A stretch of DNA of 64,000 nucleotides, taken from assembly GCA_028281825.1 (NCBI GenBank), contig JANQJC010000016.1:1-64000 (forward strand), in the 5' to 3' direction. Both the position numbers and the translations under genes were made by a program. Below are positions 1-37,555 of this stretch, piece by piece; position 1 is the stretch's first letter; every line of letters starts with the position of its first letter. The notes beneath the pieces were generated by a model that saw only the letters and a list, made by a program, of their open reading frames with translations, was not told where the DNA came from and searched no databases. This DNA is from Flavobacteriales bacterium. GTDB taxonomy: Bacteria > Bacteroidota > Bacteroidia > JANQJC01.

Positions 1-617
1 GCCACAGGAGCTTTGCCCCCAATCTTTTGCAGTAATTCTTCACACTTACCCAACAATTCATCTTGGCTGGTTACGTAGTTCACCAATCCTAACTGAAGGG
101 CTTCTTCAGCACCTATCATATCAGCGGTCATCAGCAGTTCAAAAGCCTTGCCTTTTCCAATCAACTGGATAAGCCTTTGGGTGCCACCATAGCCCGGTAT
201 CAGCCCCAGGTTAACCTCAGGTTGTCCAAACTTAGCATTATCACTGGCTACCCGAAAGTGGCATGCCATAGCCAATTCACACCCACCACCAAGAGCAAAG
301 CCATTCACAGCAGCAATAATCGGCTTAGGGCTGGTTTCTATCATATCAAAAATCTCTTGCCCTCTTGCAGCCAGCATGCTTCCCGTTCTGGCATTCAATT
401 CCTGAAACTCAGAAATATCTGCTCCGGCAACAAATGCTTTTGGTCCTGCACCTGTTATAATGGCACTCTTAATAGCATCGTTCTCCTTCACTTCAATCAC
501 TGCATTGCGGATGTCAGTTAATGTGTCTTTATTCAATGCATTAAGCTTGTCTGGGCGGTTTATGGTGATGGTAAAAATGCCATCTTCAAGGTTGGTTAAG
601 ATAGTTTCGTAACTCAT
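1..617 (-). CDS. Enoyl-CoA hydratase/isomerase (crotonase), 3' end cut by window
   Basis: The reverse strand reads from an ATG at 617 (MSYETILTNLEDGIFTI) through to base 1 without a stop, so the C-terminus lies outside the window. The visible ~205 residues carry the crotonase oxyanion-hole signatures: GADISEF, then the family signature IIAAVNGFALGGGCELAMAC, then the FGQPEVNLGLIPGYGGTQRL segment whose Glu and the preceding Glu of the GGCELA motif are the usual hydratase catalytic pair. The expected role is hydration of trans-2-enoyl-CoA in fatty acid or amino acid degradation, in the cytoplasm. The substrate cannot be told from sequence. It is divergent from purD across about 150 bp. Confidence 0.93.
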   Translation of the reverse strand, partial: MSYETILTNLEDGIFTITINRPDKLNALNKDTLTDIRNAVIEVKENDAIKSAIITGAGPKAFVAGADISEFQELNARTGSMLAARGQEIFDMIETSPKPIIAAVNGFALGGGCELAMACHFRVASDNAKFGQPEVNLGLIPGYGGTQRLIQLIGKGKAFELLMTADMIGAEEALQLGLVNYVTSQDELLGKCEELLQKIGGKAPV

Positions 618-734
618 AGCTTTATTGTTTTATCGGTGCTAATGTAAGAAAATGAGCAGCAATTAACAGTCGCGAAAAATATGCGTGATGTTACACTCTC
701 ACAAATGGAAAGATTTCTTTCATTTGAGAACACA

Positions 735-762
735 TTTGCCTGAATTATAATTCGTTACTTTG
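735..762 (+). promoter_or_regulatory. Probable promoter of purD
   Basis: A TTTG at 735-738 is followed 16 nt later by TTACTTTG at 755-762, a 7/8 match to the Bacteroidetes -7 box TAnnTTTG. The box ends 8 nt before the purD ATG. Spacing is shorter than the usual 19, so the -33 assignment is tentative. Confidence 0.5.
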
Positions 763-770
763 TAATCAAT

Positions 771-2069
771 ATGAAAAACATACTACTGATTGGCTCTGGA
801 GGAAGAGAGAGCACCTTTGCATGGAAATTGAGTCAAAGTGAAGAGCTAAACCAGCTCTACATAACACCTGGCAACGCGGGCACTGGAGCATATGGGGTTA
901 ATCTGAATTTGGCAGTAGACGACTTTGAAGGCATAGGTAGTTTTGTGTTGGAGAATGGTATTCACATGGTAATTGTGGGGCCTGAAGCTCCATTGGTTGC
1001 AGGTATAAGTGATTATTTTGAAGCTCACCCAAGGTTAAAGTACATACCAGTAATAGGCCCAGCCAAGCAGGGAGCCATGCTGGAGGGGAGCAAGGACTTC
1101 TCCAAGCAGTTTATGATAAAACATAATATCCCGACCGCTGCTTATGGCACTTTCACTTCAGCAAGCCTGGCAGAAGGTATCGAGTTTTTAAAAAGATTAA
1201 AACCACCCTACGTATTAAAAGCAGATGGCCTGGCAGCCGGCAAGGGGGTATTGATATGCGACGAATTGGTGCAGGCAAGGCTTGAGCTATCATCAATGTT
1301 GATTGAGGAAAAATTTGGCGAAGCGAGCAGCAAGGTGGTTATTGAAGAGTTTTTGAATGGAATAGAGCTATCGGTATTTGTAATTACCGATGGAGATAAC
1401 TACAAAATATTGCCTGCTGCTAAAGACTATAAACGCATTGGTGAAGGTGATACTGGTCTTAATACGGGCGGCATGGGTGCTATTTCTCCTGTTGTTTTTG
1501 CTGATGATGAGTTCATGCAAAAAGTGGAAGAGAGAATAGTGAAGCCTACTATAAATGGGCTGAAGCAAGATAAAATACCATATAGGGGCTTCATATTCAT
1601 CGGCTTGATGAACGTTGGTGGCGAGCCTTTTGTGATTGAATACAACTGCCGCATGGGCGACCCCGAGACAGAAGTGGTATTGCCGAGGATTAAAAGCGAC
1701 CTGGTAGAGGTAATGGAGGCAGTAGGTAATGGTTCTTTGGATGAGGTGGATTTGGAAATAGACCCAAGGTTTGCAACAACTGTAATGTTGGTGTCTGATG
1801 GCTATCCTGGTAAGTATGAAAAAGGCAAAGCGATAAAGAACCTGGATAAAGTGACAGAGAGCTTAGTATTTCATGCTGGCACCAAAAAGGATGAAAGTGG
1901 TCAGGTGCTTACCAATGGTGGCAGGGTGATTGCCCTCACTTCTTTTGGAGATACCATGCAAGAGGCGTTAGGTAAATCATTTAGAACTGCAGAAGTAGTA
2001 GACTTTGACGGTAAGTATTACCGTAAGGATATTGGCTTTGACCTTCAGGGCAAAGTACTCCAGAAATAG
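771..2069 (+). CDS. purD: Phosphoribosylamine--glycine ligase
   Basis: A 432-residue ATP-grasp enzyme that joins glycine to 5-phosphoribosylamine, the second step of purine synthesis. The N-terminal Rossmann-like domain begins MKNILLIGSGGRESTFAWKL. The PurD-specific VGPEAPLVAGISD comes next, then the ATP-grasp segment with VLKADGLAAGKGV, the signature YRGFIFIGLM and the metal-binding EYNCRMGDPETEVVLPR. Length matches the family (420-430). The gene stands alone. It faces a small membrane-protein gene (2091..2276) tail to tail, with 21 bp between. Confidence 0.97.
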   Translation: MKNILLIGSGGRESTFAWKLSQSEELNQLYITPGNAGTGAYGVNLNLAVDDFEGIGSFVLENGIHMVIVGPEAPLVAGISDYFEAHPRLKYIPVIGPAKQGAMLEGSKDFSKQFMIKHNIPTAAYGTFTSASLAEGIEFLKRLKPPYVLKADGLAAGKGVLICDELVQARLELSSMLIEEKFGEASSKVVIEEFLNGIELSVFVITDGDNYKILPAAKDYKRIGEGDTGLNTGGMGAISPVVFADDEFMQKVEERIVKPTINGLKQDKIPYRGFIFIGLMNVGGEPFVIEYNCRMGDPETEVVLPRIKSDLVEVMEAVGNGSLDEVDLEIDPRFATTVMLVSDGYPGKYEKGKAIKNLDKVTESLVFHAGTKKDESGQVLTNGGRVIALTSFGDTMQEALGKSFRTAEVVDFDGKYYRKDIGFDLQGKVLQK

Positions 2070-2090
2070 AATCTTAAGATAAAGATTATA

Positions 2091-2276
2091 TCAGATAGGG
2101 TTATCTGGGCTGTTAGGTATCTCGTCTTTTTGGTACCTGAACATCAAGGCAATCCAAACAACAATACCAAAGCTTATCAAGGCGATAATCGAGTTATTGA
2201 TTAATGTGCCCAATGTTGGGATAAAACCAAAAGTCCATTCAAATAAGTCCTTAAGAGGATATACTAACCAATCCAT
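2091..2276 (-). CDS. Small membrane protein, DUF6341-like
   Basis: A 61-residue protein with a short amphipathic start (MDWLVYPLKDLFEWTF) and one strong transmembrane segment at about residues 28-47, ending in a polar tail with QKDEIPNSPDNP. From memory, flavobacterial genomes carry a small DUF6341 protein next to DUF6427 and purD, and this gene sits in the same place. The name therefore rests on synteny and general shape, not on a searched match. It is divergent from the DUF6427-like gene and has a good -7 box upstream, which supports its being real. Function unknown. Confidence 0.55.
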   Translation of the reverse strand: MDWLVYPLKDLFEWTFGFIPTLGTLINNSIIALISFGIVVWIALMFRYQKDEIPNSPDNPI

Positions 2277-2299
2277 TTCTTTTGTTTTTTAGGGTGGGG

Positions 2300-2307
2300 C
2301 AAATATA
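2300..2307 (-). promoter_or_regulatory. -7 box of the DUF6341-like gene
   Basis: The reverse strand reads TATATTTG, an exact match to TAnnTTTG, 23 nt before the ATG at 2276. No clear TTG is seen 19-20 nt further upstream. Confidence 0.5.
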
Positions 2308-2368
2308 AATAATGATACTTAAGCTGTAAAACTTTTTCTTTGTAAAGTTCTACAAGCTATTACTATTC

Positions 2369-3322
2369 ATGCTCATTCGCTTTTTTAGGTCAGCCCAACC
2401 ATTGCAACTCGTCAGCTTCATAGCGCTGTGTGTTGTAGTTTGGTTAGTGGGTTTTATGCATTTCGCCAGCTATCAATCAGGCATGCCTTTCTACATGAGC
2501 TTGGAATCTCTCCTCGATATAGACATAGTAAATCGCCTATTGGTTTTGCTGTTGTTGATAGGGCAAGCCCTATTAGTTAAAAACATAGCGGATAGCTACA
2601 TCACACCAGTACGCAATTCAATGCTGCCACCCTTGGTTTTTTTGGTGTTGGCAACCAGCTTTGCCGATTGGTTTACACTAAAGCCTTATATGATAGCCAA
2701 CTTATTGCTCCTGCTGTTACTGAGAAAGGTGCAGGTGTTTTACAGGCAAGAGAATATCCTTAGGCCTGCGTTTGATGCTGGCTTGTTGGTTGGTGTAATG
2801 TCCTTTTTTTATTTGTCGGCAGCCCCGTTTTTCATCCTGATATGGGTAGCACTGGCAACCTTTAGGCCTTTTAACTGGAGAGAATGGCTGGTGCCAGTTT
2901 TTGGGCTCATTTTTCCGTGGATGATAATCCTTACCATGTATTTCGTGTTCGACGGATTAGGCGAACTCTTCCAGGTGGTTATTCCTGAGAGCTTTGAAAA
3001 AGTAGATTTGCATTTAGGGAATTATAAGTTTTATCTCGTAGCATTGGGAGTGAGTTTTTTGCCGGCAATGTGGTTGTTTTTGGGAGCTTTGAATGGAGCC
3101 ACCGTCAGGGTAAGCAAAATGCTCAACCTCATTTTTTGGATGAGCCTATTGGTTGTAGGAGTGTGGTTGCTATCGGGTATGCAATATGGCGCAGCCTACT
3201 TCTTATGTTTCCCTTTAGCCATAGTCCTCTCAAATCACTACCTTGCAATAAGAAGAAAATGGATAGCAGAACTACTTTTCTTGGTGCTACTGATATTGCA
3301 ATACTATGAGCGCTTTAGCTAA
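2369..3322 (+). CDS. DUF6427-like polytopic membrane protein
   Basis: A 317-residue very hydrophobic protein with roughly nine or ten predicted transmembrane segments (for example residues 13-33, 56-72, 88-105, 148-168, 174-192, 219-238, 249-266). It is recognised as the Bacteroidetes family DUF6427 from its start (MLIRFFRSAQPLQLVSF), its length and its place beside a DUF6341-like gene and purD. No catalytic motif is visible and no function is known. Its last 17 nt overlap the start of the following lipoprotein gene in another frame, so the two are probably translationally coupled. A TTTCTTTG at 2335-2342 is the nearest -7-like box. Confidence 0.7.
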   Translation: MLIRFFRSAQPLQLVSFIALCVVVWLVGFMHFASYQSGMPFYMSLESLLDIDIVNRLLVLLLLIGQALLVKNIADSYITPVRNSMLPPLVFLVLATSFADWFTLKPYMIANLLLLLLLRKVQVFYRQENILRPAFDAGLLVGVMSFFYLSAAPFFILIWVALATFRPFNWREWLVPVFGLIFPWMIILTMYFVFDGLGELFQVVIPESFEKVDLHLGNYKFYLVALGVSFLPAMWLFLGALNGATVRVSKMLNLIFWMSLLVVGVWLLSGMQYGAAYFLCFPLAIVLSNHYLAIRRKWIAELLFLVLLILQYYERFS

Positions 3323-3680
3323 AATATTCCTTCCATTGCTGTTAGTTGCAACTGTTTTTACAGCTTGTAAAAAAGAAGAGGAGATGTGCCGAATAGTCTA
3401 TCAGGTAACTACACGCAATGGCCTTGAACTCGACTTTCGGGTATCATACACAGGCACCAATGGCGAAACCATGATTGAAGAGCACAAGGGCCCTATATGG
3501 ACTTCAGAAGTAGTGGAAAGAGAAAGAGGTGATTATGTCTCCATAACCGTTGAAAGCGACGAAACCGAAGGCTCTTTTGATATCAACATCTTCAAGAATT
3601 CAGTGCCTTTCTTTCAAGGTGAAATGCACAACCCCAGCAACCCCGTTACTGTGGATGGTAATCTCTTGGATTTGTTTTAA
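3306..3680 (+). CDS. Small lipoprotein of unknown function
   Basis: A 124-residue protein with a lipoprotein signal (LLLVATVFTAC) and lipidated Cys20. The next residues are KKEEE, which fits the Cys-X-Lys-(Asp/Glu)2 lipoprotein export signal described in Bacteroidetes, so surface exposure is likely. The rest (residues 25-124) is polar and strand-rich, without a recognised motif. It overlaps the DUF6427-like gene by 17 nt and should be co-transcribed with it. The ATG at 3306 is chosen because it gives the complete signal peptide. Confidence 0.7.
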   Translation: MSALAKIFLPLLLVATVFTACKKEEEMCRIVYQVTTRNGLELDFRVSYTGTNGETMIEEHKGPIWTSEVVERERGDYVSITVESDETEGSFDINIFKNSVPFFQGEMHNPSNPVTVDGNLLDLF

Positions 3681-3681
3681 G

Positions 3682-3805
3682 AAGCTGTGGAGTAGCGGCA
3701 TATTAATAGCAAAGGACGGACAAATGATGCCAAGCTCCAGAGGAGCGACATATTTGTAGCAATAGGTTCACCCCCACCTATCAAAAAGGGCCGTAGGTGC
3801 GATAT
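3682..3805 (+). repeat. REP-like palindromic repeat cluster (modules A', A, B)
   Basis: Module A at 3732-3758 holds the hairpin GCTCC-AGA-GGAGC followed by GACATATTTGTA. Module B at 3790-3805 holds GCCGTAGGTGCGATAT, whose TAGGTG can pair with CACCTA at 3777-3782. A degenerate copy of A lies at 3682-3712 (AGCGGCATATTAATAGCAA compared with AGCGACATATTTGTAGCAA). A second A-B pair in opposite orientation occurs at 60802-60873. The modules fill much of the 318-bp gene-free stretch 3681-3998; I see no credible gene there. Confidence 0.65.
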
Positions 3806-3969
3806 GTAAAACGTGTCAATACATGCCGCATCTACTATGCTTGATTTTCTGCCTGATATATTATTGCTGCAAATATTTGGCCTCGATGAGACCGTAGAGG
3901 AGTTAGAGGGTAGTTTTTTCTGTCACTCAAACCCCGAGCTTTTGGGGAAGATGTTCTGTTATACTTTTG

Positions 3970-3997
3970 CCAACTGCCAACTGCCAACTGCCAACTG
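3970..3997. repeat. Four tandem copies of a 7-bp unit
   Basis: CCAACTG is repeated four times without a mismatch, ending one base before the stop codon of trpS (3999-4001 on the reverse strand). Similar CCAACTG runs are, from memory, common in intergenic DNA of this phylum. Copy number probably varies between strains. Confidence 0.9.
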
Positions 3998-3998
3998 A

Positions 3999-4967
3999 TT
4001 AATACCCCAACTTTTCTCTCACCCTTCCAATTACATCTTGGGCCACCACTCTGGCTTTATCAGCACCCACTTTCAGTCGGTCTTCCAATTCATCAGGGTT
4101 ATTTATAAAGTTGTTGTAGGCTTCACGCTCTGCGGCATACTTCCCAATCAACACTTCGTAGAGTGCCTGCTTGGCATGCCCATAGCCATAACCACCTTTT
4201 AGATAATTTTCGCGCATTTCAGCTACCTGCCCATCTTTGGCTACTAGTTTGTATAGTGCATATACATTGCACACATCTGGGTCTTTGGGTTCTTCAAGAG
4301 GGGTGCTATCAGTCACAATAGCCATCACTTGCTTACGCAACTTTTTATCAGGCAAAAAGATGTCAATAAAGTTGTTGTATGACTTACTCATCTTTTGTCC
4401 ATCAGTACCTGGTACAACCATCACCTGCTCATCATAAAGTCCTTCAGGCACCACAAAAGTGTCTCCGTATTGGTGATTGAATGAGCTGGCAATATCGCGT
4501 GTCATTTCCAGGTGCTGTTGCTGGTCTTTGCCCACAGGCACAAAATTGGCATCGTAAAGTATGATATCGCACGCCATCAAGACAGGATAGGTAAAAAGCC
4601 CGGCATTCACATCAGCCAATCGCTCAGACTTATCTTTAAAAGAATGCGCATTCGCCAACATGGGATATGGCGTAAAGCAATTCATATACCAGGTTAGTTC
4701 AGCCACTTCATTTACATCAGACTGGCGGTAAAAAACATTCTTATCCGTATCAAAACCAAAGGCCAACCAGGCTGCGGCTACGCTCCTTACATTTTGCCTG
4801 CGCACTTCTGCATCTTTAATAGTGGTTAGGGAGTGCAGGTCAGCTATAAAAAAGAAAGACTCATTCTCAGGCTGCTCCGATAGTTTTATACCCGGAAGCA
4901 TCGCTCCCAGTATGTTTCCAAGGTGTGGTGTTCCCGTGCTTTGTATGCCAGTTAGTATTCTTGCCAT
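3999..4967 (-). CDS. trpS: Tryptophanyl-tRNA synthetase
   Basis: A class I aminoacyl-tRNA synthetase that charges tRNA-Trp. Starting at the ATG at 4967 gives 322 residues beginning MARILTGIQSTGTPHLGN, the normal start of bacterial TrpS. An ATG seven codons upstream (4988) is possible but adds an atypical MAQHKNH. The HIGH-type motif is PHLGN (residues 14-18) and the KMSKS loop is intact at 192-196 (TDGQKMSKSYNN). The C-terminal helical anticodon region closes with GRVREKLGY. It is divergent from plsC. The stop codon directly abuts the 7-bp tandem repeat. Confidence 0.96.
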   Translation of the reverse strand: MARILTGIQSTGTPHLGNILGAMLPGIKLSEQPENESFFFIADLHSLTTIKDAEVRRQNVRSVAAAWLAFGFDTDKNVFYRQSDVNEVAELTWYMNCFTPYPMLANAHSFKDKSERLADVNAGLFTYPVLMACDIILYDANFVPVGKDQQQHLEMTRDIASSFNHQYGDTFVVPEGLYDEQVMVVPGTDGQKMSKSYNNFIDIFLPDKKLRKQVMAIVTDSTPLEEPKDPDVCNVYALYKLVAKDGQVAEMRENYLKGGYGYGHAKQALYEVLIGKYAAEREAYNNFINNPDELEDRLKVGADKARVVAQDVIGRVREKLGY

Positions 4968-5020
4968 GTGGTTTTTGTGTTGCGCCACGAAATTAGGAAA
5001 TAAAGCAAAAAGGTCATTTC

Positions 5021-5050
5021 TTGGTGGTAAATACTATTTCCCTACTTTTG
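5021..5050 (+). promoter_or_regulatory. Promoter of plsC
   Basis: TTG at 5021-5023, a 19-nt spacer, then TACTTTTG at 5043-5050. This is an essentially perfect Bacteroidetes promoter. The box ends 8 nt before the plsC ATG at 5059, so the 5' leader should be only a few bases long. Confidence 0.75.
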
Positions 5051-5058
5051 GCAACTTG

Positions 5059-5823
5059 ATGAAACGTTTAACACTTCCATTCCAGCTAGTCTGGCGCGTG
5101 CTTTTCTTCTTAAATGCATGCATCACCTTTGGTTTGCTGTACCCCTTGTTTGTGGTATTGCTTTCAAAACCACAGTGGTATAGGAAAGCGTTTAGGCTCA
5201 AAAAAGTATGGGCGAGATTGATACTGCACAATGTGGGTATCTTCTTTACCATAGAGAAAAAAGGCAGCTTTGGCGATGGCCCTTACGTGTATGCCCCCAA
5301 CCATACTTCCTACCTGGATATCATTATCAGCTACCTGATTATCCCAACTTATTTCCATTATATGGGCAAGGTAGAGTTGACCCGTTGGTTCATGTTCAAT
5401 ATCTTTTTCAAGGGGATGAACATCCCAGTGCAACGTGGGCACCTGCGTAGCAGCTATAATGCCTATAACCGTGCTGCCGATGATGTAGACAAAGGGATTA
5501 GCATTGCTATCTTCCCTGAAGGGATGATACCTGATGATACGCCTAAACTGGCTCGTTTTAAGAATGGAGCATTCAAATTAGCTATCGAGAAGCAGGTGCC
5601 TATTGTACCAATCATATTCATCAATGGTTGGAAGATATTACCCGCAAACGATAATCGCCTAAATGGTGGGAGGCCGGGTTTTGTCCATTGCATTATTCTC
5701 GACCCCATTGAAACTAAAGGCATGACAGATGCCGATATGAGCACCCTGCGCGATAAAATGCACGCCATGATGGAGGGGGTGTTGAGGGAAAGAGAAAAGG
5801 ATTATCCTGCCGCAGTAGCGTAA
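5059..5823 (+). CDS. plsC: 1-acyl-sn-glycerol-3-phosphate acyltransferase
   Basis: A membrane-bound acyltransferase of 254 residues that makes phosphatidic acid. The start at 5059 (MKRLTLPFQLVWRVLFF) is chosen over in-frame codons further upstream because those would run antisense through trpS and past a well-formed promoter. It has one or two N-terminal hydrophobic segments (about residues 10-40), then the HX4D motif in NHTSYLD, the second block around GMNIPVQRG, the substrate-binding FPEGM and the VPIVPIIF block. All four PlsC blocks are visible in the expected order. The stop codon is 24 bp before gatC, which has its own -7 box. Confidence 0.92.
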   Translation: MKRLTLPFQLVWRVLFFLNACITFGLLYPLFVVLLSKPQWYRKAFRLKKVWARLILHNVGIFFTIEKKGSFGDGPYVYAPNHTSYLDIIISYLIIPTYFHYMGKVELTRWFMFNIFFKGMNIPVQRGHLRSSYNAYNRAADDVDKGISIAIFPEGMIPDDTPKLARFKNGAFKLAIEKQVPIVPIIFINGWKILPANDNRLNGGRPGFVHCIILDPIETKGMTDADMSTLRDKMHAMMEGVLREREKDYPAAVA

Positions 5824-5835
5824 TATTCCATTTAC

Positions 5836-5843
5836 TATCTTTG
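5836..5843 (+). promoter_or_regulatory. -7 box of gatC, leaderless
   Basis: TATCTTTG is an exact TAnnTTTG match ending only 4 nt before the gatC ATG at 5848. Transcription should start at or next to the start codon. No clear -33 TTG is seen at 19-20 nt. Confidence 0.6.
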
Positions 5844-5847
5844 CACC

Positions 5848-6147
5848 ATGCAAATAGACAAGAAAACGGTTGATGAATTAGCCCAGTTGGCTCGCCTGGA
5901 GTATGATGACGAGTCAAAAACGGAAATGATTAACGACCTGAACAAGATATTGAAGTTTGTGGACAAGCTAAATGAGTTAGACACTGATAATGTGGAACCA
6001 CTTATCTACATGACGGAAGAAACTAACCGTTGGCGTGAAGATGAAGTGAAAGTAACCATCACTCAAGATGAAGCGCTGAAAAACGCACCAAGGCACGACT
6101 CTGATTACTTCAAGTCACCCAAAGTGATTGAAAACCCAAATGAATAA
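5848..6147 (+). CDS. gatC: Aspartyl/glutamyl-tRNA amidotransferase subunit C
   Basis: A 99-residue small subunit of the GatCAB complex, which converts mischarged Glu-tRNA-Gln and/or Asp-tRNA-Asn. Typical features are the helical start VDELAQLARLEYDDESK, the DLNKILKFVDKLNELDTDNVEPL segment that wraps around GatA, and the C-terminal LKNAPRHDSDYFKSPKVI. Length is normal. gatA and gatB are not in this window, so the complex is encoded at scattered sites. Confidence 0.95.
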   Translation: MQIDKKTVDELAQLARLEYDDESKTEMINDLNKILKFVDKLNELDTDNVEPLIYMTEETNRWREDEVKVTITQDEALKNAPRHDSDYFKSPKVIENPNE

Positions 6148-33927: not shown

Positions 33928-34284
33928 TCATTTTTTGTTATCTGAATTCACTTCAAATTCCTCCATTAGTTCTATTCCGTAATTTCTTATCGTATCTATA
34001 ATTTTAATAGAACGCATGCCGCGTTTGGTTATGGAATATTCCACTTTTGGTGGTACAACGGCATATACTTTTCTGTTTATAAAGCCTTCTTCTTCCAACT
34101 CTCTTAGTTGAGATGTGAGCATTTTATGAGTGATATGGGGGATATCTTTCTTTAATTCTCCATAACGCATTATCCGGTCTTTTAATCGCCAAAGAATTGG
34201 CATTTTCCAGGTTCCACCAATTCTGTCCATCGCAAATTCTACAGGGTTGTAGTATAGCTTTTTCTTGTACAAAAACTCAGGCAT
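33928..34284 (-). CDS. HxlR-family transcriptional regulator
   Basis: A 118-residue winged-helix protein of the HxlR/YodB type: PVEFAMDRIGGTWKMPILWRLKDRIMRYGELKKDIPHITHKMLTSQLRELEEEGFINRKVYAVVPPKVEYSITKRG. The YodB/QorR type regulatory Cys near the N-terminus is absent (FLYKKKLYYNPVEF instead), and the whole protein contains no Cys, so it does not sense by thiol chemistry. Divergent from the DJ-1/bestrophin operon across a 116-bp region that contains a dyad. It is almost certainly the regulator of that operon. Confidence 0.9.
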   Translation of the reverse strand: MPEFLYKKKLYYNPVEFAMDRIGGTWKMPILWRLKDRIMRYGELKKDIPHITHKMLTSQLRELEEEGFINRKVYAVVPPKVEYSITKRGMRSIKIIDTIRNYGIELMEEFEVNSDNKK

Positions 34285-34305
34285 TTTTTAACTATTTGAT
34301 AATCA

Positions 34306-34329
34306 GTATACTTTCTAAAAAGTGTGTAT
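34306..34329. promoter_or_regulatory. Candidate HxlR operator
   Basis: ACTTT-CTAA-AAAGT (34310-34323) is a perfect 5-4-5 dyad, flanked by GTAT on the left (34306-34309) and GTGTAT on the right. HxlR-family operators commonly have this form of dyad. It is 72 bp upstream of the DJ-1-like start codon and 22 bp upstream of hxlR. A GAAATTTG at 34373-34380 is the nearest -7-like box on the plus strand. Confidence 0.5.
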
Positions 34330-34400
34330 GGGTTATTTAGGTAAGTATATTGCCAAAGGTAGTATGATTATTGAAATTTGTCAAATCAAAAAACAAAAAA

Positions 34401-35282
34401 ATGAAAAAGACATTACTGGCACTGGTTCTCGGTTCAATTATTCTTACTGGATGTGAATCTCAAGGACAATCTACAAATGACAAATCAATTAAAAACAAAA
34501 ACGGTAAAATGGAAACACAAAAGCAAATTGTAGAAGTAAAAAATTATGTTCATCCACATGGCGCGCCTGCAAAAGGTAAAATACTAATGGTGGCAAGCAG
34601 CCCAACTGTTTCTGAACAAACAGGCTGGCCGATTGGCTTTTGGGCTGCTGAATTAACCCATCCCCTTAAGGTGTTTCAGGAAGCTGGCTATGAAGTTGAG
34701 TTGGTTTCTACTAATGGTGGACAGCTACAGATGGACGGCTACTCTGACCCTACGGATGCCAGTGGATATTCATCTCATGATATTATTTCGTTGGGCTATA
34801 TGCAACAAGAATGGTTCAATAAAATGTTAAGTAATACCAAGAGGCTGAAAGAAGTAAGTGAAAATGAGTATGACGGAATATTCTTGGTTGGTGGCCAAGG
34901 CCCTATGTATACATACCGTGGCAACGAGGAGTTGGAAGAGCTTTTTGTTTCTTTTTATGAGGCAGGTAAACCAAGTGCGGCAGTGTGTCATTCAACTACC
35001 CTATTGCTTGGAGCAAAAAAATCAAACGGAGAATTGTTGGTAAAGGGCAAGACATGGACCGGGTTTGCAAACTCTGAAGAAGACTATGCTGACCAGGCTG
35101 TTGGAATGGCGATACAACCATATAGGATAGAGGATGAGGCTAAAAAAATAGAGGAAACCAATTTTAAGGTAGCAGACGCATTTTCTTCTTATGCCATAGC
35201 TGACGGTAATTTAATTACCGGCCAACAGCAAAATTCGGGGGCTGCGGCAGCTGAATTATTAGTCGGACAACTTTCAAAATAG
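34401..35282 (+). CDS. DJ-1/PfpI-family lipoprotein
   Basis: A 293-residue protein from the ATG at 34401 with a lipoprotein signal (SIILTGC, Cys18). The DJ-1/PfpI domain follows: KILMVASSPTVSEQTGWPIGFWAAELTHPLKVFQEAGYEVELVSTNGG, YDGIFLVGGQGPMYTY, the nucleophile elbow PSAAVCHS (Cys196, His197) and the late GNLITGQQQNSGAAAAELL. This matches the Hsp31/YajL-like branch with known glyoxalase III or deglycase-type activity on aldehydes; the activity here is inferred. Being lipid-anchored is unusual. First gene of a four-gene operon with gaps of 31, 5 and 23 bp. Confidence 0.9.
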   Translation: MKKTLLALVLGSIILTGCESQGQSTNDKSIKNKNGKMETQKQIVEVKNYVHPHGAPAKGKILMVASSPTVSEQTGWPIGFWAAELTHPLKVFQEAGYEVELVSTNGGQLQMDGYSDPTDASGYSSHDIISLGYMQQEWFNKMLSNTKRLKEVSENEYDGIFLVGGQGPMYTYRGNEELEELFVSFYEAGKPSAAVCHSTTLLLGAKKSNGELLVKGKTWTGFANSEEDYADQAVGMAIQPYRIEDEAKKIEETNFKVADAFSSYAIADGNLITGQQQNSGAAAAELLVGQLSK

Positions 35283-35313
35283 TCACCACTTTGGGGCTTT
35301 AAGCTTCAGTAAA

Positions 35314-35970
35314 ATGAAGAAACTATTAATCATATCCATTATTGCAATTTGGGCTGGTGTATCAGCATCAGCCCAAATACCGGTTGAAGTTTTTTCAGGT
35401 AATGAAAGAACCACCTTAGACATAATGTTTTTTAGGTTCTTCAAAAACAAAAATGGCGAAAACAGCCATTGGCTTTTTTTCAATCGTAATAGGGCTGGTG
35501 TTGATTATAGGATAACAAGTTCTAAGCATCTCCCTGTGTTTGGTTTTACCGAGGCTATCTCATACAATCATCCCAAATTCAAGGGTTTTGCTCCAGTTGC
35601 TGTGGCCCAAGTGTTAAGTTGGGGAGTGTATCCCAAAGCTGGGGTACAGTATGTGGCAATGAAAGAGAGTTTAACCATTTTCTCATGGATAGTGAGTGAA
35701 ACATTAAGAAATCCTACAATTGATTTCTACGTGCTTTGCAGATATACACCACCATTGTCTGAGCATCTTAATTTGTTTTGCCAGATTGAAAGTCTGAATG
35801 CATTTTCAACTCCCTCTGAAGAAGGTAATACTTCTTTGGTTCAAAGGGCTAGGCTCGGACTAAAAATAAAAGAATGGCAGTTTGGTGCAGGGGCTGATTT
35901 TAGCCAGGCAAGCAGTTCAAGATATATCCTAAATAAAAACATAGGGGCTTTTTTAAGACATGAATTTTAA
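35314..35970 (+). CDS. Putative outer membrane beta-barrel protein
   Basis: A 218-residue protein with a signal peptide (MKKLLIISIIAIWAGVSASAQ). The mature part has alternating amphipathic strands separated by short turns (FFNRNRAGVDYRIT, FGFTEAISYNH, PVAVAQVLSWGVYPKAGVQYVA, LTIFSWIVSETL, TIDFYVLCRYTP, LNLFCQIESLNAF, RARLGLKIKEWQFGAGADFSQ) and ends in a terminal Phe (LRHEF), as outer membrane barrels do. I do not recognise a family. It is the second gene of the HxlR-controlled operon, 5 bp before the bestrophin gene. Confidence 0.72.
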   Translation: MKKLLIISIIAIWAGVSASAQIPVEVFSGNERTTLDIMFFRFFKNKNGENSHWLFFNRNRAGVDYRITSSKHLPVFGFTEAISYNHPKFKGFAPVAVAQVLSWGVYPKAGVQYVAMKESLTIFSWIVSETLRNPTIDFYVLCRYTPPLSEHLNLFCQIESLNAFSTPSEEGNTSLVQRARLGLKIKEWQFGAGADFSQASSSRYILNKNIGAFLRHEF

Positions 35971-35975
35971 TAGAA

Positions 35976-36914
35976 ATGCTAGTAAAGAGAAATTTTAACC
36001 CAGTTAAGGTTTGGCAATACATCAAAGGTCAGATGACATGTATAATACTGTGGTCAGTAGCAGTTTGGTTGGTGTATTATTTAAGCGAAAACCAGAGCAT
36101 GGCTATAAACTTTGCCCCAGTTGGGGTAATGGGTTCTGCCCTTGCTATTTTTGTGGCTTTCAGGAACAATTCGGCTTATGGGCGCTGGTGGGAGGCCAGA
36201 CAACTTTGGGGTGGTATTGTTAATTCAAGCAGGGTGTTGGCAAGATTGGTTATTACTTTTACAGACAGCCATTCTCATCAAGAGAATTACAATAAAGAGC
36301 GAAGTAATGATTTTAAACATGATTTGGTTTATTTATGTATTGCCTGGGTTCATTCACTAAGACTACATTTAAGGGCACAAAATACCTGGGAAGAATTGAA
36401 TCCCTTTTTTACTTCGAAAGAGGAATATAATGAACTGATAAACAGACAAAACAAGCCCACTTATTTACAACTGCTTATAGGTAATAGGATATACCAAGCT
36501 ATGGCTGATGGCACTCTAGGTGGTTTTGATAGTTTTCAGATGGAAGGTCAGTTGTTAGCGTTGGCCAATTACCAGGGAGGGTGTGAACGTATTAAAAACA
36601 CTCCCCTTCCCAAGCAATATGATTTTTTCACCAGGGTATTTATCGTTATCTTTTCTTTTTTGTTGCCTTTTGGGCTTTTAACTTTTTTTGCAGAAGCTAA
36701 TTCATGGCTTATTATTCCAATTTCTATATTGGTTTCCGGAGTGTTTGTTATTATGGAGCGCACTGGTGCTGCAAATGAAAATCCTTTTGAGAATTTGATA
36801 ACTGATGTGCCTTTAACAGCAATTTGTAATACTATTGAACGGGATTTGAAAGAAATGCTAGGTGATAAAAGCCTGCCTGAAAAATTAGAGCCAACTGAAG
36901 GTTACTTATTTTAG
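35976..36914 (+). CDS. Bestrophin/UPF0187-family anion channel
   Basis: A 312-residue inner membrane protein of the bestrophin-like (YneE) family. Signature: AIFVAFRNNSAYGRWWEARQLWGGIVNSSRVLARLV, with further transmembrane segments at about 25-45, 50-65, 215-235 and 240-260, and the ENPFENLITDVPLTAICNTIERDL segment that matches the conserved neck region. Bacterial bestrophins form pentameric channels for anions, in some cases cations. Placed in an operon with a DJ-1 lipoprotein and a dehydrogenase, it may control ion flux during the same stress. Confidence 0.92.
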   Translation: MLVKRNFNPVKVWQYIKGQMTCIILWSVAVWLVYYLSENQSMAINFAPVGVMGSALAIFVAFRNNSAYGRWWEARQLWGGIVNSSRVLARLVITFTDSHSHQENYNKERSNDFKHDLVYLCIAWVHSLRLHLRAQNTWEELNPFFTSKEEYNELINRQNKPTYLQLLIGNRIYQAMADGTLGGFDSFQMEGQLLALANYQGGCERIKNTPLPKQYDFFTRVFIVIFSFLLPFGLLTFFAEANSWLIIPISILVSGVFVIMERTGAANENPFENLITDVPLTAICNTIERDLKEMLGDKSLPEKLEPTEGYLF

Positions 36915-36937
36915 TTGAAAAAAATATAAAGAATGAT

Positions 36938-37555
36938 ATGAAAATAGCTGTAATTGGAACTGGAAATGTAGGTGGTGCACTGGCTACTAAATGGGCAAAT
37001 TCAGGTCATACTATTTATTTGGGTGCTAATGACTTAGATAGCTTTAAAGGCAAAGAGTTGCTTAAAAACCAGAATACTACTGTTAATACAATCGCCGATG
37101 CAGTAGCCAATTCTGAAATAATTTTACTGGCAACTCCTGCGACTGTTGCGGTTGAGGTGACCAAATCTTTGGGAGACACTACTGGCAAGGTGATTATTGA
37201 TGCGATGAACATTATAATGGGTAGGGGGCCAACTGGATATAGTAATACGGCTGATGCGGTCTTGGCAAACACACCAACTGCAGATGTGGTAAAATGTTTT
37301 AATACCACCGGATTTAATAATATGCTAAATCCTATGTATGGCTCTACTGCTATTGATGCTTTTGTAGCTGGCGATAGTGAGAGAGGTAAATCAATGGCAA
37401 TTGCACTGGCTAAAGATGCAGGTTTCGGGGAGTGTTATGATATAGGAGGAAATGATAAATTTCAACTGATGGAACAATTCGCATGGTTTTGGATTAACCT
37501 GGCAATGTTTAAAGGCCAAGGTAGGGACATTGGTTTCAAATTGTTGAAGCGTTAA
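36938..37555 (+). CDS. F420-reductase-like NAD(P)-binding oxidoreductase
   Basis: A 205-residue protein with the N-terminal dinucleotide motif VIGTGNVGGALA (Gly7, Gly9, Gly12), then AVANSEIILLATPATVAVEVTKSLGD, KVIIDAMNIIMGRG, ADVVKCFNTTGFNNM and a C-terminal helix LMEQFAWFWINLAMF. It belongs to the NADPH-dependent F420 reductase superfamily (COG2085), whose bacterial members without F420 act as reductases of unknown substrate. Last gene of the HxlR-controlled operon, facing the DUF2807 gene with 8 bp between. Confidence 0.88.
   Translation: MKIAVIGTGNVGGALATKWANSGHTIYLGANDLDSFKGKELLKNQNTTVNTIADAVANSEIILLATPATVAVEVTKSLGDTTGKVIIDAMNIIMGRGPTGYSNTADAVLANTPTADVVKCFNTTGFNNMLNPMYGSTAIDAFVAGDSERGKSMAIALAKDAGFGECYDIGGNDKFQLMEQFAWFWINLAMFKGQGRDIGFKLLKR

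What the first reader, a model, noticed from the sequence alone, without database searches (positions are those of the whole stretch)
33928..37555. HxlR-controlled cassette: DJ-1 lipoprotein, barrel protein, bestrophin channel and F420-like reductase
A cysteine-free HxlR regulator is divergent from four tightly packed genes (gaps 31, 5, 23 bp). Together they cover every compartment: a lipid-anchored DJ-1/PfpI protein with the Cys196-His197 elbow, a barrel-like outer membrane protein of no known family, a bestrophin inner membrane channel and a soluble NAD(P) oxidoreductase. DJ-1 proteins often detoxify reactive aldehydes and HxlR regulators often respond to electrophiles. Coupling both to an anion channel is unusual and I know of no described system like it. 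The grouping is seen; the function is inference.
Basis: partly seen in the sequence, partly recalled or inferred. Interest (0 to 1): 0.62.

Follow-up and report, generated by a model that had tools for sequence, protein, structure and literature searches.

The report
Conserved DJ-1/bestrophin carbonyl-stress operon
A bacterial operon that pairs a DJ-1-type aldehyde-detoxifying enzyme with a bestrophin ion channel turns out to be conserved, with its own DNA switch, across many Bacteroidota families, and related copies add a potassium channel, suggesting that these bacteria defend against reactive chemicals by combining detoxification with an ion-flux response.

Summary
The order hxlR | dj1 – outer-membrane barrel – bestrophin – COG2085 reductase recurs in about two dozen loci from many Bacteroidota families, including other classes and a named plasmid. 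A second draw of genomes served as an out-of-sample test: 8 of the 9 new bestrophin loci carry hxlR+dj1+barrel, and the ninth is cut by its contig end. A conserved operator, TACTTTC-N6-GTGTGTA, lies between hxlR and dj1 and is the only perfect site in the host genome.

Three points need correction. (1) The lipid anchor of DJ-1 is not conserved. (2) The bestrophin neck is Ser-Ile-Phe; the middle Ile is that of the Na+ channel KpBest, so 'anion channel' is unproven. (3) The reductase is unlikely to use F420: the genome has no CofD homologue.

New: relatives insert a K+ channel after the bestrophin (TMEM175 in 8 loci, an unrelated Ion_trans_2 channel in the same slot in one); some add beta-carbonic anhydrase or a VOC-glyoxalase-like gene. 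I propose a carbonyl/electrophile-stress operon whose enzymes clear the toxin while its channels change cytoplasmic ions or pH, as Kef does. The enzymatic half is likely; the ion half is inference.

The parts
33928..34284 (-). hxlR: HxlR/DUF24-type winged-helix regulator, no cysteine; Asn13/Val15 where B. subtilis HxlR has its sensing pair Cys11/Lys13
   Evidence: Pfam HxlR 1.7e-27; orthologues without the N-terminal Cys in every locus examined; Cys11/Lys13 mechanism from PMC7835342
34309..34328 (.). Operator: inverted repeat TACTTTC-N6-GTGTGTA between hxlR and dj1
   Evidence: Conserved in alignment A5; 11-14 of 14 positions in most loci of the class; only zero-mismatch site in the 4.02 Mb genome
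34341..34347 (.). Second conserved half-site GTAAGTA, downstream of the main operator
   Evidence: Alignment A5
34354..34361 (-). Possible -7 element TACCTTTG (Bacteroidota type TAnnTTTG) for hxlR
   Evidence: Read from the sequence, partly conserved; consensus from own knowledge
34401..35282 (+). dj1: DJ-1/PfpI protein of the Hsp31/glyoxalase III type with a lipoprotein signal; E84, C196, H197, E227 invariant in homologues
   Evidence: Pfam; PDB matches 1u9c, yeast Hsp31 and glyoxalase III 4lru; alignment A4
35314..35970 (+). Signal peptide plus predicted 12-stranded outer-membrane beta-barrel, no Pfam family
   Evidence: conserved charged residues fall on the predicted lumen side
35976..36914 (+). 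Bestrophin_2 (PF25539) channel, neck S54-I58-F62
   Evidence: Pfam 5.6e-61; KpBest homologue; alignment A3; cassette clade support 100/98
36938..37555 (+). COG2085-type NAD(P)-binding oxidoreductase (F420_oxidored fold, npdG/FNO/STEAP-like)
   Evidence: below the npdG equivalog cut-off (51 vs 149.8 bits)

Best explanation
This is a dedicated carbonyl/electrophile-stress operon. A cysteine-free HxlR regulator sits on the operator between the two divergent transcripts and switches the four-gene unit in response to a reactive metabolite or something derived from it (the operator is shown by footprint; the signal is inferred and cannot be thiol chemistry at the usual N-terminal Cys). The DJ-1/Hsp31-type enzyme (intact E-C-H-E site) converts 2-oxoaldehydes such as methylglyoxal or glyoxal to the hydroxy-acid, in periplasm or cytosol depending on the species (family-based inference). 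The COG2085 enzyme reduces a second electrophilic product with NAD(P)H (inference). The membrane genes form the ion arm: the bestrophin, in relatives with a K+ channel next to it and sometimes a carbonic anhydrase, lets ions cross the inner membrane while detoxification runs, shifting cytoplasmic K+ or pH in the way Kef efflux protects E. coli from electrophiles; the 12-strand barrel is the outer-membrane pore for the same traffic (inference). Confidence by step: conserved cassette 0.97; HxlR control 0.9; electrophile or carbonyl detoxification as its purpose 0.65; protective ion/pH flux as the role of the channel 0.3.
For: Synteny across families and classes, and hxlR-dj1-bestrophin on plasmid pHALHY03. 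Out-of-sample test: nine newly drawn bestrophin loci; the eight not cut by a contig end carry hxlR, dj1 and a barrel. Operator. Catalytic E84/C196/H197/E227 in all alignable homologues and solved glyoxalase III/Hsp31 relatives. Detoxification neighbours: VOC-glyoxalase-like, OsmC, zinc quinone reductase, alpha/beta hydrolase fused to DJ-1, and in other phyla GFA, antibiotic biosynthesis monooxygenase and aldehyde dehydrogenase beside DJ-1 relatives. The DJ-1 + COG2085 pair also occurs in Nostoc plasmids under LysR or an annotated transcriptional regulator. Ion arm: TMEM175 between bestrophin and COG2085 (or after bestrophin) in 8 loci, an unrelated Ion_trans_2 channel with a TSIGFGD filter in the same slot in L154, dj1-Ion_trans_2 in L118, beta-carbonic anhydrase in L016 and L157; a bestrophin of another clade joined hxlR-dj1 separately in L117. 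Kef precedent: K+ efflux, acidification and an oxidoreductase partner (PMC10224563).
Against: No expression or enzyme data. DJ-1 family members have several claimed activities (glyoxalase, chaperone, protease), so the substrate is not fixed by homology. Ion selectivity of this bestrophin is unknown. CPA2 antiporter homologues occur in 12 of 13 of these genomes, three over the family cut-off, so the ion arm would be additional, not a replacement. The window's genome has no TMEM175. Five loci keep hxlR-dj1 with a COG2085-type gene (only 31% identical in L113) and no bestrophin, so the channel is not obligatory. The operator match is weak in L149-L152.
Confidence: 0.5

Rival explanations
1. Product-export conduit: DJ-1 makes lactate or glycolate; bestrophin (inner membrane) and barrel (outer membrane) carry the carboxylate, or bicarbonate, out of the cell. 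The K+ channel in relatives supplies the counter-ion.
For: An inner-membrane channel and an outer-membrane barrel gene are adjacent in nearly every bestrophin-bearing locus, and the barrel can be swapped for an unrelated DUF481 barrel. The barrel resembles the small-porin fold KdgM/NanC. Carbonic anhydrase in some loci, and bestrophin-mediated HCO3- transport in algae (PMC6708349 abstract).
Against: The neck's middle residue is Ile, as in the cation channel KpBest (PMC8496536); the predicted barrel lumen carries about equal numbers of conserved positive and negative residues, not an anion-selective pattern.
Confidence: 0.2
2. General envelope or osmotic stress operon: the channels restore ion balance after membrane damage, and DJ-1 acts as a chaperone/holdase rather than a glyoxalase.
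For: DJ-1 is secreted in many loci; Hsp31 is named a chaperone in PDB entries.
Against: The neighbouring enzymes are carbonyl and redox detoxifiers rather than proteases or chaperones, and the nucleophile site is invariant.
Confidence: 0.15
3. Coincidental packing: adjacent unrelated genes, with hxlR controlling only dj1.
For: Gene content varies; bestrophin, COG2085 or barrel is missing in some loci.
Against: Order kept between proteins that have diverged to 26-79% identity in many families; eight of nine new loci fit; ten control bestrophin loci have none of the partners.
Confidence: 0.02

Closest known systems
KefFC/KefGB potassium-efflux system
   Same: Electrophile defence that combines ion movement through the inner membrane with a soluble oxidoreductase partner; K+ channels occur in 9 of the related cassettes
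   Different: No antiporter, no KTN/RCK domain and no glutathione gate in the cassette; the channel is a bestrophin; regulation looks transcriptional through HxlR
B. subtilis hxlAB/HxlR and YodB/HypR-type electrophile regulons
   Same: HxlR-family regulator next to detoxification enzymes
   Different: The sensing Cys is absent (Asn) and so is Lys13 (Val); enzymes and membrane genes differ
Hsp31/glyoxalase III proteins (1u9c, 4lru, yeast Hsp31)
   Same: Sequence family and E-C-H-E active-site residues
   Different: Here secreted or lipidated in several species and embedded in a channel operon
KpBest (Klebsiella bestrophin, 4wd7/4wd8)
   Same: Bacterial bestrophin fold, Ile-Phe in the lower two neck positions
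   Different: 31% identity; Ser in place of Ile62; clade-specific loop DSHAHQ and aperture-region motif GTLGGFDSFQMEGQ

Membership tests
DJ-1 superfamily, Hsp31/glyoxalase III type | Glu30-Cys138-His139-Glu170 (yeast Hsp31 numbering) active site | tested here: met
DJ-1 superfamily, Hsp31/glyoxalase III type | Glyoxalase activity on methylglyoxal | not testable with these tools
   Needs an enzyme assay
HxlR/DUF24 regulators | HxlR winged-helix domain | tested here: met
   Pfam PF01638 1.7e-27; HxlR crystal structures matched
HxlR/DUF24 thiol sensors | Conserved N-terminal Cys (Cys11 in HxlR) | tested here: not met
   Asn13 in its place; orthologues have no N-terminal Cys
Bestrophin family | Bestrophin domain and pore helix | tested here: met
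   PF25539 5.6e-61; KpBest alignment
Anion-selective bestrophins | I-F-F neck (middle Phe) | tested here: not met
   Neck S-I-F in nearly all cassette loci (GIF in L076, TIF in L156); the role of the middle residue is from PMC8496536. Selectivity itself is untested
F420:NADPH oxidoreductase (npdG) | Equivalog score and an F420-making host | tested here: not met
   51 bits vs cut-off 149.8; no CofD homologue in the genome, which is 96% complete
Kef system | CPA2 antiporter with KTN domain, gated by glutathione adducts | tested here: not met
   No such gene in the cassette; CPA2 homologues lie elsewhere in the genomes
Outer-membrane beta-barrel | Signal peptide, even number of antiparallel strands, C-terminal Phe | tested here: met
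   12 strands, pLDDT 84; Phe at the end of the last strand in all 12 homologues; PDB barrel matches up to TM 0.57, a prediction only
DUF481 (PF04338) barrels | Sequence homology to DUF481 | tested here: not met
   hhalign of the barrel profile against the cassette DUF481 proteins finds nothing, though DUF481 fills the same slot in other loci

The most novel reading that the evidence does not exclude
A modular functional analogue of Kef: carbonic anhydrase makes H+ and HCO3-, bestrophin lets HCO3- out, and the adjacent K+ channel (TMEM175 or Ion_trans_2) lets K+ out, so that the net effect is K+/H+ exchange and cytoplasmic acidification during carbonyl stress, co-induced with a glyoxalase by a thiol-independent HxlR sensor. 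The window holds a reduced form with only the bestrophin.
Probability: 0.15. Interest if true: 0.85.

Novelty: new variant of a known kind. Interest (0 to 1): 0.6.

Why it matters
Physiological roles of bacterial bestrophins and of bacterial TMEM175 channels are poorly understood (own knowledge). A conserved operon that ties both to aldehyde detoxification gives each a concrete, testable role, brings out an outer-membrane barrel family without a Pfam model, and points to an HxlR sensor that cannot use the known cysteine chemistry.

Tried and rejected
Anion-only channel reading: not supported by the neck. F420 chemistry: rejected, no CofD. DUF481 homology of the barrel: rejected by hhalign. Replacement of Kef or glutathione: rejected as a general claim, since CPA2 antiporter homologues and a strong GSH-synthetase-type hit occur in the host genome. 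The genome-contig scan with the barrel gave one locus only. Literature searches for bestrophin with PfpI/HxlR, DJ-1, glyoxalase or TMEM175 showed no description of this operon in the titles and abstracts listed; subscription papers are not covered.

Full report
Observation. The DJ-1 gene most likely starts at ATG 34401; counted from there the nucleophile is Cys196-His197. The genome is G000, 4.02 Mb in 144 contigs, with the window on contig C77. None of 60 sampled relatives lies closer than the same class.

Conservation. The barrel was found in 17 of 395 genomes of the class (weak matches included), the bestrophin clade at 54-71% identity in 13 counting the window's own, and DJ-1 in 21. Neighbourhoods show the same order, hxlR divergent from dj1 – barrel – bestrophin – COG2085, in the window, G042, G134, G137, G110, G128 and G407, and the same without COG2085 in LGM1 (L014) and G041; in G014, G209, G122, G052 and G787 a DUF481 gene takes the place of the barrel. 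In G122 and G052, as in L156, the DUF481 gene follows the bestrophin rather than preceding it. G034 keeps the order with a frameshifted dj1 and no hxlR found; G305 has neither dj1 nor hxlR. Loci L017, L036, L112, L113 and L114 keep hxlR-dj1 and a COG2085-type gene (weak, 31%, in L113) but no bestrophin.

Out-of-sample test. A separate draw of 396 genomes from the phylum gave nine new bestrophin loci, most of them outside the class. Eight of nine carry hxlR, dj1 and a barrel or DUF481 gene; in the ninth (L155) the bestrophin begins 163 bases after the contig start, and the COG2085 gene follows. Ten control bestrophin loci outside the clade (L078-L087) show no homologue of any partner. A tree puts the cassette bestrophins in one clade (100/98), while the bestrophin next to hxlR-dj1 in L117 belongs to another, so channels joined this cassette more than once.

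Regulation. Between hxlR and dj1 an inverted repeat TACTTTC-N6-GTGTGTA is kept while the rest of the intergenic region has diverged. It scores 11-14 of 14 in most loci of the class and in L154 and L157, but is weak in L149-L152, where the site may have changed. In G000 it is the only zero-mismatch site; the other hits have three mismatches and are near the level of the reversed-pattern control. Orthologues lack the N-terminal Cys. Sensing must therefore use another chemistry or a bound ligand (inference).

Enzymes. DJ-1 is of the Hsp31/glyoxalase III type. Its localisation, judged by eye from the N-termini, is variable: lipobox in the window and L112, plain signal peptide in L014, L033, L034 and others, none in L016, L037, L074, L113 and L122. 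The COG2085 protein resembles FNO and the STEAP reductase domain, but no CofD homologue was found, so F420 is an unlikely cofactor. The DJ-1 + COG2085 pair recurs in two Nostoc plasmids.

Membrane part. The barrel family has no Pfam model and is predicted as a 12-strand barrel, with conserved Arg/Lys and Asp/Glu on the side that sequence alternation predicts to face the lumen. The bestrophin neck is S-I-F; in KpBest the neck is I-I-F and conducts Na+, and the I66F change favours Cl- (PMC8496536). Selectivity of the present channel is therefore open, with cation conduction at least as likely as anion conduction. After the bestrophin, eight loci carry TMEM175 (L016, L018, L034, L149-L152, L157), one carries an unrelated Ion_trans_2 K+ channel (L154) and one a TMEM175 remnant (L015). 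Beta-carbonic anhydrase is present in L016 and L157, with remnants in L018 and L076. Two unrelated K+ channels filling one slot argues that K+ conduction is a selected function there.

Mechanism. The best-supported reading is a carbonyl/electrophile-stress operon. The Kef system shows that K+ movement and cytoplasmic acidification protect bacteria from electrophiles and that an oxidoreductase can be a partner (PMC10224563). By analogy the channels of this cassette may serve the same end; this step is inference. Rivals are export of the acid product and a general envelope-stress role.

Limits. No transcription, enzyme or electrophysiology data exist here. Chance co-location is excluded, function is not proven. 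Domain calls for extra genes rest on Pfam for representatives and on tblastn with those representatives for the rest. The library of papers holds open-licence papers only.

Noticed in passing
L015 8154-8308; L018 1258-1500; L076 9361-9504: Partial, apparently degraded copies of TMEM175 (L015) and carbonic anhydrase (L018, L076) beside the cassette: the fuller cassette was probably ancestral there and is being pruned.
   Followed up: partly
window 34401-34560 and L014, L015, L033, L034, L112: Signal-bearing DJ-1 proteins keep an internal Met just before the conserved YVHxHG block, where the cytosolic orthologues start; dual start sites and dual localisation are possible.
   Followed up: no
L036 4809-6317; L115 6015-7556: In L036 DJ-1 is fused to a C-terminal alpha/beta hydrolase domain (Pfam Abhydrolase_6); L115 has a similar-length DJ-1 protein (513 aa, not scanned).
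   Followed up: partly
L123 (Spirosoma sp. KNUC1025 plasmid) 4004-5876: A separate HxlR-linked unit: HxlR divergent from an antibiotic biosynthesis monooxygenase and a bestrophin, near pirin-like, YceI and SDR genes.
   Followed up: partly
L121 (Comamonadaceae plasmid CP099604.1) 4327-5888: Carbonic anhydrase gene overlapping a bestrophin gene, an independent hint at bicarbonate handling by bacterial bestrophins.
   Followed up: no
L136 (Agrobacterium plasmid) 1-4702; L134, L137: DJ-1 relatives in Pseudomonadota lie near LtrA membrane proteins, and in Agrobacterium also an MscS-type channel, another DJ-1/membrane-protein association.
   Followed up: no
L127, L128, L129 (G407): Three copies of the cassette or its pieces in one genome, two of them on contigs of about 3.5 kb.
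   Followed up: no
G305 contig C2 around 81500-88380 (L073): dj1 and most of the barrel are missing next to a very long reverse-strand ORF (at least 2179 aa within the stretch); the search reports a 24128-codon open frame on the other strand.
   Followed up: no
L018 3744-4498 (G034): dj1 is frameshifted and hxlR was not found, while bestrophin, TMEM175 and COG2085 remain.
   Followed up: partly
L122 (pHALHY03) 1720-2355: The Haliscomenobacter bestrophin gene is annotated short (181 aa) and matches only residues 100-312 of the query.
   Followed up: partly
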